Shown here: positions 1,346 to 6,422 of the stretch, piece after piece
Layout of the letters: each line of letters starts with the position of its first letter
How positions within the stretch are numbered: the stretch's first letter is position 1
From: JBFLXN01 sp040755715 [NCBI: Candidatus Edwardsbacteria bacterium]
GTDB lineage: Bacteria; Edwardsbacteria; AC1; JBFLXN01
Length of the DNA: 6,545 nt
NCBI GenBank assembly: GCA_040755715.1
Contig: JBFLXN010000155.1
Span: 1 to 6,545 of the forward strand
Reading direction: 5' to 3'
Notes under the pieces: model-generated
Seen by the model: the letters and a program-made list of their open reading frames with translations, nothing else
Database searches by the model: none
Told to the model about the DNA's origin: nothing
Translations under genes and position numbers: made by a program

Positions 1346-1381
1346 ACATAAAATATCAAAATGCAAAAATCAAAATGCCCG

Positions 1382-1413
1382 CCTGCCATAGAACAGAATG
1401 TTCAGCGGACAGG
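1382..1413. repeat. Degenerate palindrome inserted in the 7-mer array
   Basis: CCTG (1382-1385) pairs with CAGG (1410-1413), and inside it GAAC (1391-1394) pairs with GTTC (1400-1403). The segment is GC-richer than its surroundings and interrupts the A-rich 7-mer units, which resume at 1428. It looks like a decayed mobile palindrome that landed inside the older array; the order of events is inferred from nesting only. Confidence 0.4.
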
Positions 1414-1450
1414 TAAAATGACATACCAAAATTCAAAAATTAGAAATAAC

Positions 1451-1499
1451 CAATCACTAAATCAAATCTTGTTGGATATTGTAATTTATTTGGTGATTG
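1451..1499. repeat. Inner inverted repeat of the convergent spacer
   Basis: CAATCACTAAATCAAAT (1451-1467) is complementary, with a few mismatches, to ATTTATTTGGTGATTG (1484-1499), leaving a loop of 16 bases. It is the second nested level of the 1351-1651 element. Confidence 0.55.
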
Positions 1500-1505
1500 A
1501 TGCTT

Positions 1506-1590
1506 GCCCCGTTAGAAATCTTTTGGAGGCTTCAGGAAATGTCTGCCGAAGAAGGTGGCAGTGTTATAGTTTGAAAATTTCTAACGGGGC
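1506..1590. repeat. Perfect 14-bp inverted repeat with a 57-base loop
   Basis: GCCCCGTTAGAAAT (1506-1519) is exactly complementary to ATTTCTAACGGGGC (1577-1590). The 57-base interior contains GCTTCAG, GTCTGCCGAAG and GGTGGCAG but shows no coding signal. No T run follows the stem on either strand, so it is not an obvious terminator. It is the GC-richest part of the spacer and probably a separate insertion inside the 7-mer array. Confidence 0.7.
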
Positions 1591-1662
1591 TTGGTTGTTG
1601 GTATTTTTACCATTTTGGTTTGTAATTTTGATTTTTGATATTTGATATTTGATTTTGTAATG

Positions 1663-2865
1663 CTATCTTCTCCTCAACCATTTTAGAGGGTCAACGGGTT
1701 TTCCATTCTGCCTGATTTCAAAATGGAGATAGACTCCTTCGCCCTGTAGGGATGTTTCATAAAACGCCCCTCCTAAACTGCCAATGGGCTGTTCCATTCT
1801 TATTTCGTCTCCCGGGTAAACAAAAATCTCCCCGAGCTGACTGTAGAGTGTATAGAACCCACCGTTGTGATCAAGGAGGACCATTTTTCCATACCCTAAG
1901 AAGCGGTCAGCATAAACGACTTTGGCAGAACCGATAGCACAGACTTTTGTTTGAGGTGGAGCCTCCAGGTCAATTCCGTTATTCATAATAGCAGTGCCAT
2001 ATTTTTGATGCTGTTTCTTGCCAAAGAAAGAAATGACTCTTCCCTCAAGTGGCCAGGGTAGACTTCCCTGATGAATTTCAAAATAGTGGGTTCCCTTTCT
2101 TGGGGGGGGTAAACCCTTCTTAGCCAAAGCCTCTTTGCGTTGTCGCTCTAATTCCTCAATCAATCTCTGAAGTTTCTTGGCCGCCTGTTCCAATTCTTTC
2201 ACCATTTTTTCTTTTTCGGCGCGCTCGCTTCTTATTCTAACTAATAATTTGTCTTTTTCTTTTTTCTCCTGCTGGATATTTTCTTCCTCTCTTTCTTTTT
2301 CTGAGCGGACTTCCGAAAGGGCTTGGAGTTTTCTCTCCAAATCTTGCTTTTGAGTCTGAATTCTTTCTCTCTCACTTTTAATTTCTTCGTATAATAAGCG
2401 GTCAGCAGTAGCAATAAGTTTCAAGTATTTGTATCGCCGGGCAAAATCAGTAAAAGAACGAGCAATCAGAAGAATCTCAAAATCGTGTAATGAGCCGTGT
2501 TTGTAAATTTCTCTAAGTCTTTTTTCCATTATTTTTTCTCTTCTCCCCATCCGCTCGGTGGCTAAGGACAATTCATATTCCAAAAGATTTACCTCTGAGG
2601 TAAGTCTTTCTTCCTTGCCTTTAAGAAGTGAAACCATGCGGTGAGTTAGTTCAAGTTCCTTTTCAATTTCCTCAAGATTCTCCAAGAGACTGACTTCTTT
2701 ACCTTTTAGTTCTCTCACTTCAGCTCGGGTAGCCTTTAATTGGTTTCTAATCTCCGCCAGTTCTTTTTCTTCTTTCTCAATCTGCGTGCTTATTTGTGCC
2801 TGGGCAAAAACAAAACTCACGCTATGAAACAAGACAATGAACACAAATTTTATCAAATTTTGCAT
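1663..2865 (-). CDS. envC: EnvC-like murein hydrolase activator (coiled coil plus degenerate LytM domain)
   Basis: A 400-residue exported protein. It has a signal peptide (residues 1-21, probable cleavage after VFA), a long Glu/Lys/Arg-rich coiled coil (about 24-248), a Pro linker (PPPR, 253-256) and a C-terminal LytM/M23 domain (about 268-400). The fold motifs are recognisable: WPLEG (271-275), NNGIDL (295-300), TLYSQL (339-344) and YLHFEIR (379-385). The active site is not intact. The first His of HxGxD is Asn295 (Asp299 is kept), the middle His is Gln343 and the first His of HxH is Tyr379 (His381 is kept). It should therefore activate an amidase rather than cut peptidoglycan, like EnvC of E. 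coli, and work in the periplasm under FtsEX. It is the last gene of the operon, 64 nt after ftsX, with a weak AAGG before the ATG. A run of eight C in the coding strand lies exactly in the linker. Confidence 0.9.
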   Translation of the reverse strand: MQNLIKFVFIVLFHSVSFVFAQAQISTQIEKEEKELAEIRNQLKATRAEVRELKGKEVSLLENLEEIEKELELTHRMVSLLKGKEERLTSEVNLLEYELSLATERMGRREKIMEKRLREIYKHGSLHDFEILLIARSFTDFARRYKYLKLIATADRLLYEEIKSERERIQTQKQDLERKLQALSEVRSEKEREEENIQQEKKEKDKLLVRIRSERAEKEKMVKELEQAAKKLQRLIEELERQRKEALAKKGLPPPRKGTHYFEIHQGSLPWPLEGRVISFFGKKQHQKYGTAIMNNGIDLEAPPQTKVCAIGSAKVVYADRFLGYGKMVLLDHNGGFYTLYSQLGEIFVYPGDEIRMEQPIGSLGGAFYETSLQGEGVYLHFEIRQNGKPVDPLKWLRRR

Positions 2866-2929
2866 AATACCTTGCAGTATTGAAATTTCAACAAATTTCT
2901 ATGTATTTTTATTTCGTGGTCTTGTCTTC

Positions 2930-3796
2930 CTATAATCTTAGGAATCTCTTTAGAGAAATGTAGCTACCTAAAATTCCCACTAAAACTCCAAATCCTACTA
3001 AAAAGAGAATTTCCCGTTGACCTAAAAAGACCACCCCCCCCCATTTTTCCGAAAGAAAGTGATAACCCAGATAAAGAGAGCCTAAAGACATTCCGGCACC
3101 AATCACTCCTTGAATTATTCCCTCCAGCAAAAATGGACGGCGAATGAAATTATCAGTAGCCCCAACTAACTTCATAATCTCAATTGCTTCCCGGCGAGCA
3201 AAAATCGTCAGACGAATGGTATTGGAAACCACAAACAAAGAGGCAAAAACAAAAATAATTAAAAGTAGTCCATCTACAGAGAGAAGCACCACAATTACCT
3301 GATATAATTTTTCCACCCAGTCTTTACCATATTCTACTTCTTCCACTCCAGATAAAGAGGCAATCTGGGAAGACAGATAAGCCAAGTACTTAGGGTCTTT
3401 ACAGTCTCTCAAAACTTTAACTTGAAATGAGGGGGGCAAAGGATTGGTTTCTAAGGCATCAAGCAAATCACCTTTTTCGGAGAGTTCTTGCCGAAAGCGT
3501 TTTAACGCCTCTTCTTTAGAAATATAATGCACTTCTTTGACGCCACCCATTTCCCGGATTTTTCCCTTCAATGTTTGCACGCTGTTAGAAGAAAGTTCGT
3601 CTTTGAGAAAAACAGTGATTTCCACTTTTTCTTGGGCTTGTTTAATCAGGCGGTGCAGGTTTACAGTGGCTATTAGAAAAATTCCTAAAATAAATAGAGA
3701 AATAGTGATGATAAAGATTGAAACCAAAGTCATAAGTCTTGCGCGTTTGAAACTTAAAAGCGCTTCCTTGAAACTATAAGAAATATTTAAGGCCAT
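2930..3796 (-). CDS. ftsX: Cell division protein FtsX, membrane subunit of FtsEX
   Basis: A 288-residue inner-membrane protein with the FtsX plan: a cytoplasmic N-terminus, TM1 (about 22-45), a periplasmic domain (about 46-165) that in this family contacts EnvC-type partners, TM2 (about 166-192), a cytoplasmic loop with the conserved RREAIEIMKLVGAT (201-214) that couples to the ATPase, TM3 (about 222-246) and TM4 (about 262-282). The length is normal for the family. The ATG is supported by AGGAGA five bases upstream (3802-3807). It lies between ftsE and envC; the 151-base gap to ftsE is unusually wide for a pair that normally overlaps or abuts, and is filled by an inverted 9-base-period array. 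Codons for Trp252-Val255, between TM3 and TM4, contain nine G in a row, and codons for Pro121-Pro122 contain six C on the coding strand. A one-base slip at the G9 run would remove TM4. Confidence 0.95.
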   Translation of the reverse strand: MALNISYSFKEALLSFKRARLMTLVSIFIITISLFILGIFLIATVNLHRLIKQAQEKVEITVFLKDELSSNSVQTLKGKIREMGGVKEVHYISKEEALKRFRQELSEKGDLLDALETNPLPPSFQVKVLRDCKDPKYLAYLSSQIASLSGVEEVEYGKDWVEKLYQVIVVLLSVDGLLLIIFVFASLFVVSNTIRLTIFARREAIEIMKLVGATDNFIRRPFLLEGIIQGVIGAGMSLGSLYLGYHFLSEKWGGVVFLGQREILFLVGFGVLVGILGSYISLKRFLRL

Positions 3797-3823
3797 CTCT
3801 TTCTCCTAAAAGTGGCGAGTAGC

Positions 3824-3949
3824 AAGTAGAGAGTATCCGGTTAATTGGGTTTGTTAGGTTTATTGAGCTCATTGGGTTTTAGTAACCCGATAAACTCAAC
3901 AAACTGTGTAAAACCAGTAAACTTATCCATTTCTCACTACTCTCTACTT
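3824..3949. repeat. Inverted 9-base-period array between ftsE and ftsX
   Basis: The core is nine consecutive 9-mers. Four read as ATTGGGTTT-type units (ATTGGGTTT, GTTAGGTTT, ATTGAGCTC, ATTGGGTTT; 3844-3879). Five follow in the opposite orientation (TAGTAACCC, GATAAACTC, AACAAACTG, TGTAAAACC, AGTAAACTT; 3880-3924). The core is enclosed by perfect 12-bp inverted arms, AAGTAGAGAGTA (3824-3835) and TACTCTCTACTT (3938-3949). The ftsE stop codon (3948-3950) lies in the outer arm. In RNA it could form a long imperfect hairpin between the two cistrons. Confidence 0.8.
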
Positions 3950-4625
3950 ACTTCTTCTCTCTCAGGCTGGTATCGCTTTTTATTTCGCCTTTTTCGATCT
4001 GCAGCCGGCGATAGGGGAGACGTTTGACCAATTCTAAGTCATGAGTAGCCATCAAGATAGCTGTGCCCTTGGTATTAATTTCACGCAGAAGTTGTAAGAT
4101 TTCCGCAGCACCTTCGGGGTCAATGTTACCGGTGGGCTCGTCAGCCAGAAGGACAAAGGGCTCGTGAACTAAAGCTCTAGCGATAGAAATTTTTTGCTGT
4201 TCCCCACCAGAAAGTTGATAGGGATAGGCATCTCGTCGGTGGCTTAGGCGGACATCGGTTAAGGCTTTTAAAACCTTTTTTTGAGTCTCTGAACGACGAG
4301 TGCCTGTGACTTGTAAGGCAAAGGCAATATTGTCATAAGCATTTCGGTCAGGCAGGAGTTTAAAATCCTGAAAGACCACGCCAATTTTTCGCCGCAAGAG
4401 AGGAATTTCTCTTCTTCTTATTTTTGAAGCACGAAATCCTGCTACGATTACTTCACCACGGGTAGGGAACTCATCCATATAAATGAGTTTCATCAGAGTT
4501 GTTTTGCCTGAACCTGACGGTCCGACCAAAAAGACGAATTCACCTTTATTAATCTTGAGATTGATATTTTTTAGGGTAAACCAATCTTTTTCATATAATT
4601 TGTCAACATGGCGAAGCTCAATCAT
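3948..4625 (-). CDS. ftsE: Cell division ATP-binding protein FtsE
   Basis: A 225-residue ABC ATPase, cytosolic and bound to FtsX. The nucleotide-binding set is complete: Walker A GPSGSGKTT (35-43), Q-loop Gln86 in VVFQDFKLLPDRNAYDNIAF, signature LSGGEQQ (138-144), Walker B VLLADEPTG (158-166) with catalytic Glu163, and H-loop His195 in MATHD. The FKLLPDRN and YDNIAF segments and the short length separate FtsE from LolD-type transporter ATPases, and the ftsX gene downstream settles the assignment. ATP hydrolysis is expected to drive FtsX and, through it, EnvC at the septum. AGAGGA precedes the ATG by a few bases; an overlapping ATG four bases upstream is out of frame. The last codons and the stop fall in the flank of the 9-base-period repeat, so the Ser/Leu/Arg/Glu/Lys/Lys tail may be repeat-derived. 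Confidence 0.96.
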   Translation of the reverse strand: MIELRHVDKLYEKDWFTLKNINLKINKGEFVFLVGPSGSGKTTLMKLIYMDEFPTRGEVIVAGFRASKIRRREIPLLRRKIGVVFQDFKLLPDRNAYDNIAFALQVTGTRRSETQKKVLKALTDVRLSHRRDAYPYQLSGGEQQKISIARALVHEPFVLLADEPTGNIDPEGAAEILQLLREINTKGTAILMATHDLELVKRLPYRRLQIEKGEIKSDTSLREKK

Positions 4626-4650
4626 TCATTCCTCTACTTATTTAACGAAT

Positions 4651-4800
4651 AGATACCAATAGAAACTGATAGAAATTTATTGAAATTCATTGAAATTTAT
4701 GGAAACTCATTGGAATTCATCTTTTCACTTAATTTCTATCAGTTTCAATCTATTTCTATGAATTTCTTCTTATATTTCTACGAATTTCTATTAATTTCTG
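4651..4800. repeat. Inverted 10-base-period array between pdxA and ftsE
   Basis: Fifteen consecutive 10-base blocks. Seven are of the AGAAATTCAT type (AGATACCAAT, AGAAACTGAT, AGAAATTTAT, TGAAATTCAT, TGAAATTTAT, GGAAACTCAT, TGGAATTCAT; 4651-4720). Then comes a spacer block CTTTTCACTT (4721-4730) and seven blocks in the opposite orientation (4731-4800). Each block carries a GAAA or TTTC core in the same phase. The pdxA stop codon (4791-4793) and its last two sense codons lie in the final block. A-tracts repeated every 10 bases match the helical pitch and should bend the DNA; the RNA could form a long imperfect hairpin between the cistrons. Confidence 0.85.
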
Positions 4801-6276: not shown

Positions 6277-6422
6277 GAGATTGCTGAAAAAGTTTTTTTC
6301 TGTCACCCTGAACTTGTTTCAGGGTCTCATAATCCTGAATCAAGTTCAGGATCGGTTTTTCAAGATGCTGAAATAAATTCAGCATGACAACTTACGCTGA
6401 TTTAAGTTTTTTCAGCAACCTC
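6277..6422. mobile_element. MITE-like element with 15-bp terminal inverted repeats and three internal hairpins
   Basis: The ends GAGATTGCTGAAAAA (6277-6291) and its complement (6408-6422) match at 14 of 15 positions. Inside, TGTCA (6301-6305) and TGACA (6385-6389) bound three hairpins of one design, each with a CTGAA, 5-base loop, TTCAG core: CCCTGAA/TTCAGGG (6306-6312, 6318-6324), ATCCTGAA/TTCAGGAT (6332-6339, 6345-6352) and ATGCTGAA/TTCAGCAT (6365-6372, 6378-6385). No coding capacity is present. It begins two bases after the TPR stop. The structure is seen; mobility is inferred, and no target-site duplication is clear. Confidence 0.55.

What the first reader, a model, noticed from the sequence alone, without database searches (positions are those of the whole stretch)
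1351..4800. Three spacers hold inverted arrays of short units with different periods: 7, 9 and 10 bases
The spacers at 1351-1651, 3824-3949 and 4651-4800 share one plan: several tandem degenerate units, then similar units in opposite orientation, so the whole folds back on itself. The unit differs each time: about AAAATNC (7), ATTGGGTTT (9) and AGAAATTCAT (10). Random decay of one element would not give three exact, different periods. This points to a process that builds inverted tandem arrays from a seed (slippage plus fold-back copying) or to a repeat class defined by architecture rather than sequence. I do not recognise a described family with this rule.
Basis: partly seen in the sequence, partly recalled or inferred. 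Interest (0 to 1): 0.75.

Follow-up and report, generated by a model that had tools for sequence, protein, structure and literature searches.

The report
Palindromic spacer repeats with fixed unit lengths
Three gaps between genes hold fold-back stretches of short repeated words of 7, 9 and 10 letters; other bacteria carry similar elements, at least one of which spreads as a whole piece and stretches by whole words, so this looks like an overlooked variety of small repeated DNA.

Summary
Spacers 1346-1662, 3797-3947 and 4626-4790 hold degenerate inverted tandem arrays of period 7, 9 and 10 that beat dinucleotide shuffles. S3 is overwhelming, S2 good, S1 modest. The architecture occurs elsewhere: 85 of 543 spacers sampled in eleven genomes of several phyla, against 1 of 62 in E. 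coli and almost none in shuffles. Most samples were chosen after a hit; blindly chosen contigs give 7 of 75. Families differ in unit length (6 to 10 nt). The proposed origin, building each array in place by slippage plus fold-back copying, is not supported as the general rule. The one family examined closely, an 8-mer outer/6-mer inner palindrome, occurs in 10 copies at 8 unrelated sites with conserved non-repetitive linkers, and its core length varies only in steps of 6 nt (10 of 10). Orthologous spacers of one genus usually carry different arrays: 5 of 34 comparisons are conserved. Best reading: small non-coding dispersed palindromes, MITE/REPIN-like in behaviour, with unit slippage in the arms. 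What moves them is unknown.

The parts
1347..1377 (+). S1 outer left arm, 7-mer units (AAAATNC type)
   Evidence: arms 1348-1376 / 1625-1653 86% complementary; lag-7 autocorrelation of the whole spacer z 6.1
1378..1412 (.). inner hairpin of S1 (GCCCGCCTGCC...GCGGACAGG), similar by eye to the CCTGCC mini-palindrome seen inserted in another array
   Evidence: DNA fold; insert in an 8-mer arm of G395
1413..1450 (+). S1 second block of left-arm 7-mers
   Evidence: arms 1415-1453 / 1591-1629 77% complementary
1451..1499 (.). inner hairpin of S1 (CAATCACTAAATCAA / TTTATTTGGTGATTG)
   Evidence: pair I15, 87% complementary
1506..1590 (.). inner hairpin of S1 (GCCCCGTTAGAAATCTT / AAAATTTCTAACGGGGC)
   Evidence: pair I9, 94% over 17 nt; RNA fold z -4.4
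1591..1662 (-). S1 outer right arm, 7-mer units (TTTTGAT type)
   Evidence: TRF period 7, 4.4 copies at 1626-1656; lag 7 z 4.0
3810..3835 (+). S2 outer left arm, 7-mer units (GTAGCGA/GTAGAGA type)
   Evidence: pairs I1 and I3; 3815-3835 matches exactly in Omnitrophota genomes G013 and G016
3841..3930 (.). S2 inner palindrome of 9-mer units (TTGGGTTTR)
   Evidence: lag 9 z 5.4, lag 18 z 4.8; fold z -5.4; clusters with 9 other distinct period-9 arrays
3938..3955 (-). S2 outer right arm, 7-mer units; runs into the last codons of ftsE
   Evidence: pair I1, 89% complementary
4646..4720 (+). S3 left arm, 10-mer units (GAAATTCATT)
   Evidence: TRF period 10; lag 10 z 7.9
4723..4799 (-). S3 right arm, 10-mer units in opposite orientation; runs into the 3' end of pdxA
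   Evidence: lag 10 z 4.9; fold z -5.5; clusters with 6 other distinct period-10 arrays

Best explanation
Each array is a copy, or the remains, of a small non-coding dispersed palindrome (about 60-200 nt) whose two arms are made of short tandem units. Unit length (6-10 nt) is characteristic of a family and differs between families. New copies reach spacers as whole elements, arms plus central linker (shown for one composite), through an unidentified activity (inferred). Arms then grow and shrink by whole units through strand slippage (unit steps shown in one family and at one orthologous site; slippage inferred). Other families come to lie next to or inside existing ones, which gives concentric arrays of different period such as S2 (pattern shown, insertion inferred). 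Old copies are lost quickly, so related species rarely share them (shown in one genus). The window's three arrays would be one such element or composite from each of three families with periods 7, 9 and 10 (inferred; its genome is not held).
For: Composite 8-mer/6-mer element: 10 copies with the left linker plus one partial copy (L310) were aligned. Two pairs have similar flanks, so the 10 mark 8 sites. Variants of the linkers GGGTTGAACACTTTGAGG and CTATTTTTCC align in the 10 while flanks do not. Core length is 50, 50, 56, 56 and six times 62 nt in 10 of 10, all steps of 6 (a stricter anchor measured 8). One exact 7-nt unit difference between orthologous spacers (L160_12753). In one genus 5 of 34 orthologous comparisons keep 80% or more of the spacer. 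At etfA-etfB, G001 and G392 share 8-mer outer arms but hold a 7-mer and a 6-mer core, G393 keeps one arm, and G395 has a different 7-mer. Apex motifs recur: 6 of 8 in the AAATTTC family, 8 of 12 in the 8-mer family, 3 of 4 copies of the 9-mer family in G022. Several clusters have a single period: 9 (10 distinct arrays), 10 (7 distinct), 7 (10 arrays).
Against: No target-site duplication, fixed terminus or mobilising gene was found. Whole-element dispersal with linkers is shown for one composite only; other families share units and apex. 0 of 19 Y1 transposase genes examined (of 90 matches) are flanked by such arrays. Constant period within clusters is partly built in: arrays cluster by alignment, and the Omnitrophota members were fetched by similarity to S2 or S3. 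Three clusters mix periods (6 with 8; 7, 8 and 9; 6 and 7), and the largest has 2 of 19 off its period; only the 6/8 mixture was checked and is the composite. Mild arm mirroring fits the fold-back rival. Flank unrelatedness was judged by nucleotide BLAST at 1e-10, so very divergent orthologous sites could be missed.
Confidence: 0.6

Rival explanations
1. Local construction: each array arises in place from a short quasi-palindromic seed by replication slippage and fold-back (template-switch) copying, so unit length records the seed.
For: Units change number in whole steps; the same spacer carries unrelated units in sister species; 15 of 76 arrays show unit-specific arm matching at p<0.05 against about 4 expected, median p 0.18.
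Against: The composite family shares non-repetitive linkers at 8 unrelated sites. Unit families recur in many spacers and several phyla. S2 and S3 show no unit-specific mirroring (p 0.44 and 0.14).
Confidence: 0.2
2. Selected RNA structures: the arrays are kept as transcription terminators or mRNA 3'-end stabilisers.
For: Strong folds; under-represented between divergent genes (6 of 88, against 67 of 388 co-directional and 12 of 67 convergent, Fisher p 0.010).
Against: No terminator-like site in S2 or S3 and one in S1 (1543-1561); 3 in the scanned region against 3.6 in shuffles. Arrays lie inside gene pairs expected to be co-transcribed (etfB-etfA, ftsE-ftsX; established knowledge). Absent or replaced in sister species, e.g. 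a 95-nt array spacer against a 5-nt spacer. Hairpin function does not need a fixed 6-10 nt period. Divergent depletion is also expected if arrays merely damage promoters.
Confidence: 0.12
3. Chance or AT-rich composition: periodicity and folding are no more than low-complexity spacers give.
For: S1 alone is modest (21 of 1000 shuffles as periodic, 11 of 1000 as folded, and single control spacers exceed it on one measure each). On blindly chosen contigs the rate is 7 of 75 spacers (1 of 19, 4 of 32, 2 of 24) against 1 of 62 in E. coli, not a large contrast.
Against: 85 of 543 spacers meet both criteria against 0.2 in a full set of shuffles. Coding windows 2 of 1762. Sequence families recur.
Confidence: 0.03
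4. REP/REPIN elements moved by RAYT (Y1) transposases.
For: Y1_Tnp genes are present in 10 of 10 genomes tested; both kinds are dispersed intergenic palindromes.
Against: 0 of 19 Y1 genes examined have an array in the 170 nt on either side (none reached z 5); several have other shared ends such as GGGGACGT. G022 and G194 have arrays but 1 Y1 match each. Five of 14 control genomes also have the family.
Confidence: 0.05

Closest known systems
GGGAATC heptamer repeats of Xanthomonas and GGGGA(C/T)T of Nostoc (PMC4692102; passages and discussion read)
   Same: Intergenic tandem heptamers; 70 and 75 cases of two repeat sites in opposite orientation in Xcc and Xac; under-represented between divergent genes; length and sequence variation between close relatives.
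   Different: G-rich units of one length; only a few inverted pairs in Nostoc; no nested families of different period and no dispersal of linker-bearing elements in what I read.
TAACTGA heptamer repeats of Beggiatoaceae, Cyanobacteria and Bacteroidetes (PMC4679880, passages read)
   Same: Mostly intergenic heptamers shared between distant phyla.
   Different: Almost all direct (169 direct sets, one inverted in the Maribeggiatoa genome), mostly upstream of a start codon.
STRR/LTRR heptads and SDR elements of Nostoc (recalled; not read)
   Same: Tandem heptads in spacers, very small mobile hairpins, nested insertions (from memory).
   Different: Inverted arrays with family-specific 6-10 nt period are not something I recall for them.
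REPIN/REP-RAYT (PMC3116915, passages read)
   Same: Non-autonomous dispersed intergenic palindromes, some inserted into or next to each other.
   Different: Not built of 6-10-mer tandem units in what I read; no RAYT association found here in 19 of 90 genes.
MITEs (general knowledge)
   Same: Short non-coding inverted-repeat elements dispersed as whole units.
   Different: No terminal repeat of a known IS and no target-site duplication shown; arm length varies by whole units.

Membership tests
MITE | non-coding copies with alignable body at unrelated sites | tested here: met
   for the 8-mer/6-mer composite: 10 copies, 8 sites; not testable for the window's own copies
MITE | target-site duplication at both ends | tested here: inconclusive
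   looked for by eye; no clean empty site with both flanks was found
MITE | terminal repeats matching an autonomous transposon | not tested
   only Y1 transposase flanks were examined
REPIN/REP-RAYT | element flanks its RAYT gene | tested here: not met
   0 of 19 Y1 genes examined, of 90 matches, have an array in 170 nt on either side
REPIN/REP-RAYT | GTAG or CGTC tag on a 20-40 nt palindrome | not tested
   definition from the title and start of the abstract of PMC3733652 (listing); the outer 7-mers of S2 contain GTAG but as a repeated unit
intergenic heptamer tandem repeats (SSR/STRR type) | head-to-tail 7-nt units in spacers | tested here: met
   S1 and the outer arms of S2; 7 is the commonest period elsewhere, 54 of 85
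intergenic heptamer tandem repeats (SSR/STRR type) | unit length 7 | tested here: not met
   S2 core is 9, S3 is 10; elsewhere 6 (9), 8 (14), 9 (6), 10 (1), 12 (1) of 85
intrinsic terminator | GC-containing hairpin followed by a T-rich tail | tested here: not met
   no terminator-like site in S2 or S3; one in S1 at 1543-1561, and the region has no excess over shuffles (3 against 3.6)
CRISPR or other Rfam RNA | match above the family's gathering score | tested here: not met
   none of the 6 matches with E up to 5 in the window reached its gathering score

The most novel reading that the evidence does not exclude
A previously unnamed class of small mobile palindromes, spread over several phyla, in which unit length (6-10 nt) is a heritable family trait, arms evolve by whole-unit slippage, and existing palindromes act as landing sites for other families, so that spacers are continually rewritten from the inside. 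An unknown enzyme would recognise the fold-back architecture rather than one sequence.
Probability: 0.3. Interest if true: 0.78.

Novelty: new variant of a known kind. Interest (0 to 1): 0.52.

Why it matters
In the genus studied, sister species seldom share these palindromes at the same spacer, so they would be a fast and apparently little described force on intergenic DNA in uncultured bacteria. How abundant they are is uncertain: 7 of 75 spacers on blindly chosen contigs, more where I followed hits. The unit-step variation and concentric nesting make two questions testable: what moves very small palindromes, and why tandem units of about seven bases are so common in bacterial spacers.

Tried and rejected
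Placing the host: among 384 Omnitrophota genomes the FtsX matches seen were partial (191 genomes, best 30% over about 100 residues), so I saw no orthologue there. The best full-length match is 42% in a genome labelled Latescibacterota (29 and 64 genomes), so the lineage stays open.

Rfam gave nothing above gathering. Arm mirroring was tested by permuting units: mild overall; S1's p 0.009 is not informative, because permuting also breaks its inner hairpins. RAYT association was tested on 19 of 90 Y1 matches and not found. Nesting: 9 nested, 10 side by side, 3 crossing among 22 relations in 17 of 79 array spacers (spacers over 450 nt left out; shuffles gave no relations), so insertion at the palindrome centre is not shown to be preferred. 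Nine paper searches listed nothing that I recognised as describing this class; I judged from listings, and most subscription journals are not in that library.
Full report
WHAT IS IN THE WINDOW. The window carries DUF58 (+), an EnvC-like M23 peptidase, FtsX, FtsE and PdxA (all -). Three spacers between them hold the reported arrays. Autocorrelation is highest at lag 7 (S1, z 6.1), lag 9 (S2 core, z 5.4) and lag 10 (S3, z 9.6), with 0 of 500 dinucleotide shuffles reaching the maximum in each. Fold-back structures form over each: z -7.0 for S1, -5.4 for S2, -5.5 for S3. In a stricter sliding-window test S3 is overwhelming (0 of 1000), S2 good (1 of 1000) and S1 modest (21 of 1000); S1 and S2 would miss the z 5 cut-off used in the survey below, and one control spacer is more periodic than S1 (14 of 1000, lag 13) while another folds back more (4 of 1000 against 11). 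S1 and S2 are composites: S2 is a 9-mer palindrome inside a pair of 7-mer arms, and S1 is a pair of 7-mer arms holding several hairpins.

HOW COMMON IT IS. Spacers were called by a simple ORF rule and scored for periodicity (lags 5-13) and fold-back. Spacers meeting both criteria: G001 (locus L048, Deltaproteobacteria RBG_16_49_23) 37 of 203; its genus mates G392 9 of 42, G395 9 of 56, G393 8 of 76; another genome labelled Deltaproteobacteria, G002, 4 of 32; Planctomycetota G003 4 of 36 and G005 5 of 35; Omnitrophota G127/G183/G194 7 of 39 and G022 2 of 24; E. coli K-12 1 of 62. Together 85 of 543 without E. coli; shuffles gave at most 0.2 per sample. Selection matters. Most stretches were chosen because a search had hit them or as orthologues of such stretches, and the genomes because a first scan of 80 loci (19 stretches found) or a similarity search pointed to them. 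On contigs taken blindly the counts are 1 of 19 in G001 (28 of 142 and 8 of 42 in its other stretches), 4 of 32 in G002 and 2 of 24 in G022. Coding windows of G001 give 2 of 1762. Periods of the 85: 7 (54), 8 (14), 6 (9), 9 (6), 10 (1), 12 (1).

PERIOD GOES WITH FAMILY. All-against-all comparison of 103 entries gives mostly single-period clusters. S2's cluster has 11 entries, all period 9, of which two are the same array, so 10 distinct: window, 7 Omnitrophota loci, and one each in G002 and G393. S3's has 8 entries, all period 10, 7 distinct: window and 6 Omnitrophota loci. A CAATGGT cluster has 10, all period 7; the largest, 19, has 17 at period 7. Three clusters mix periods (6 with 8; 7, 8 and 9; 6 and 7); only the first was looked into and is the composite below. 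Twenty entries are singletons. The Omnitrophota members were fetched by similarity, and arrays align best when periods agree, so the constancy is partly built in. In some searches and 7 of 193 Omnitrophota genomes matched S2 and S3 (at most 4 candidates scored per genome, so lower bounds); two of the 8 match only the outer 7-mer arm of S2.

THEY TURN OVER FAST. For 82 G001 spacers, 38 had an orthologue in at least one of three genus mates; 17 of these 38 carry an array in at least one species. In 34 pair comparisons with an array on either side, 5 keep 80% or more of the G001 spacer, 2 keep 50-70%, and 27 less than 40%. In 10 of the 34 both species have an array; 2 of these 10 are conserved. 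At etfA-etfB, G001 and G392 share 8-mer outer arms but hold a 7-mer and a 6-mer core; G393 keeps one 8-mer arm; G395 has a different 7-mer array. At L165_835 four species show three different 7-mer families. A 95-nt array spacer in G001 (94 nt in G395) corresponds to 5 nt in G393. Some 'absent' calls are arrays under the threshold.

ONE FAMILY MOVES AS A WHOLE AND CHANGES BY WHOLE UNITS. The 8-mer/6-mer composite of the G392 etf spacer was found over most of its length in G001, G390, G391 and G395; 8 of 10 genus genomes have some match (at most 40 candidates per genome scored). I aligned 11 loci; one (L310) lacks the left linker and arm. Two pairs of the other 10 share flanks, so they mark 8 sites. 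Arms, two non-repetitive linkers and the 6-mer core align; flanks do not. Core length between the linkers is 50 (2), 56 (2) or 62 (6) nt, i.e. steps of exactly 6 in 10 of 10; in the orthologous pair L302/L308 it differs by 12. At another spacer G395 has exactly one more 7-mer than G001. Apex motifs recur in other families (6 of 8; 8 of 12), which suggests but does not show the same for them.

WHAT MOVES THEM. Unknown. Y1 (RAYT-type) transposase genes are present in 10 of 10 genomes, with 90 matches, but 0 of 19 genes examined are flanked by an array (one of the 20 stretches fetched showed no usable ORF). No target-site duplication could be read, because no clean empty site was found.

FOLD-BACK COPYING. 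If one arm were a mirror copy of the other, permuting units of one arm should lower the match. It does so at p<0.05 in 15 of 76 arrays (about 4 expected; 9 of the 85 had arms too short), with a median p of 0.18, but not for S2 or S3. So some mirroring exists, and fold-back copying may take part; it does not explain shared linkers at unrelated sites.

COMPARISON WITH WHAT IS KNOWN. Inverted heptamer pairs are on record in Xanthomonas (PMC4692102; 70 and 75 cases), with the same scarcity between divergent genes that I see (6 of 88 against 79 of 455, p 0.010). TAACTGA heptamers in several phyla are nearly all direct (PMC4679880). REPINs are dispersed palindromes (PMC3116915). Nine searches of the paper library listed nothing I recognised as inverted arrays with family-specific periods of 6-10, nested and dispersed. 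I therefore file it as a new variant of a known kind: small dispersed intergenic palindromes with tandem-unit arms.

SHOWN AND INFERRED. Shown: the arrays, their periods and folds; recurrence in other genomes; turnover in one genus; unit-step variation and linker conservation in one composite; no terminator-like site in S2 or S3. Inferred: that the window's three arrays behave as that composite does, that the movement is transposition-like, that concentric arrays arise by insertion, and that sharing between phyla reflects transfer and not convergence.

Noticed in passing
931-938, 2102-2109, 3034-3042: Runs of 8 G, 8 G and 9 C inside the DUF58, EnvC and FtsX reading frames; such tracts can be phase-variable or sequencing-prone.
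   Followed up: no
6300-6392: CCTGAACTTGTTTCAGG / CCTGAATCAAGTTCAGG palindromes in the spacer after the last listed ORF; fold-back reached by 4 of 1000 shuffles but no tandem period. A different, REP-like repeat.
   Followed up: partly
24-52: Short hairpin CCCCGACATAAATGTCGGGG near the window start (seen).
   Followed up: no
L225:5090-5270 and its G395 orthologue: A 21-nt CCTGCCTG...CAGGG palindrome sits inside an 8-mer arm in G395 but not in G001; a similar palindrome lies inside S1 of the window (by eye).
   Followed up: partly
   Followed up: no
L276, L282, L283, L285 (Y1 transposase genes): Four Y1 genes share the 5' flank GGGGACGTAGGTTCTAAAACAACTTGACA and a 3' flank that begins AACC(A/T)ACGTCCCC, probably their own recognition ends.
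   Followed up: no
G001 AAATTTC-type arrays, e.g. L162:6454-6527: The two arms differ systematically (GCAGATT on one side, TCAGATT read on the other), so the stem carries about one mismatch per unit (seen by eye).
   Followed up: partly
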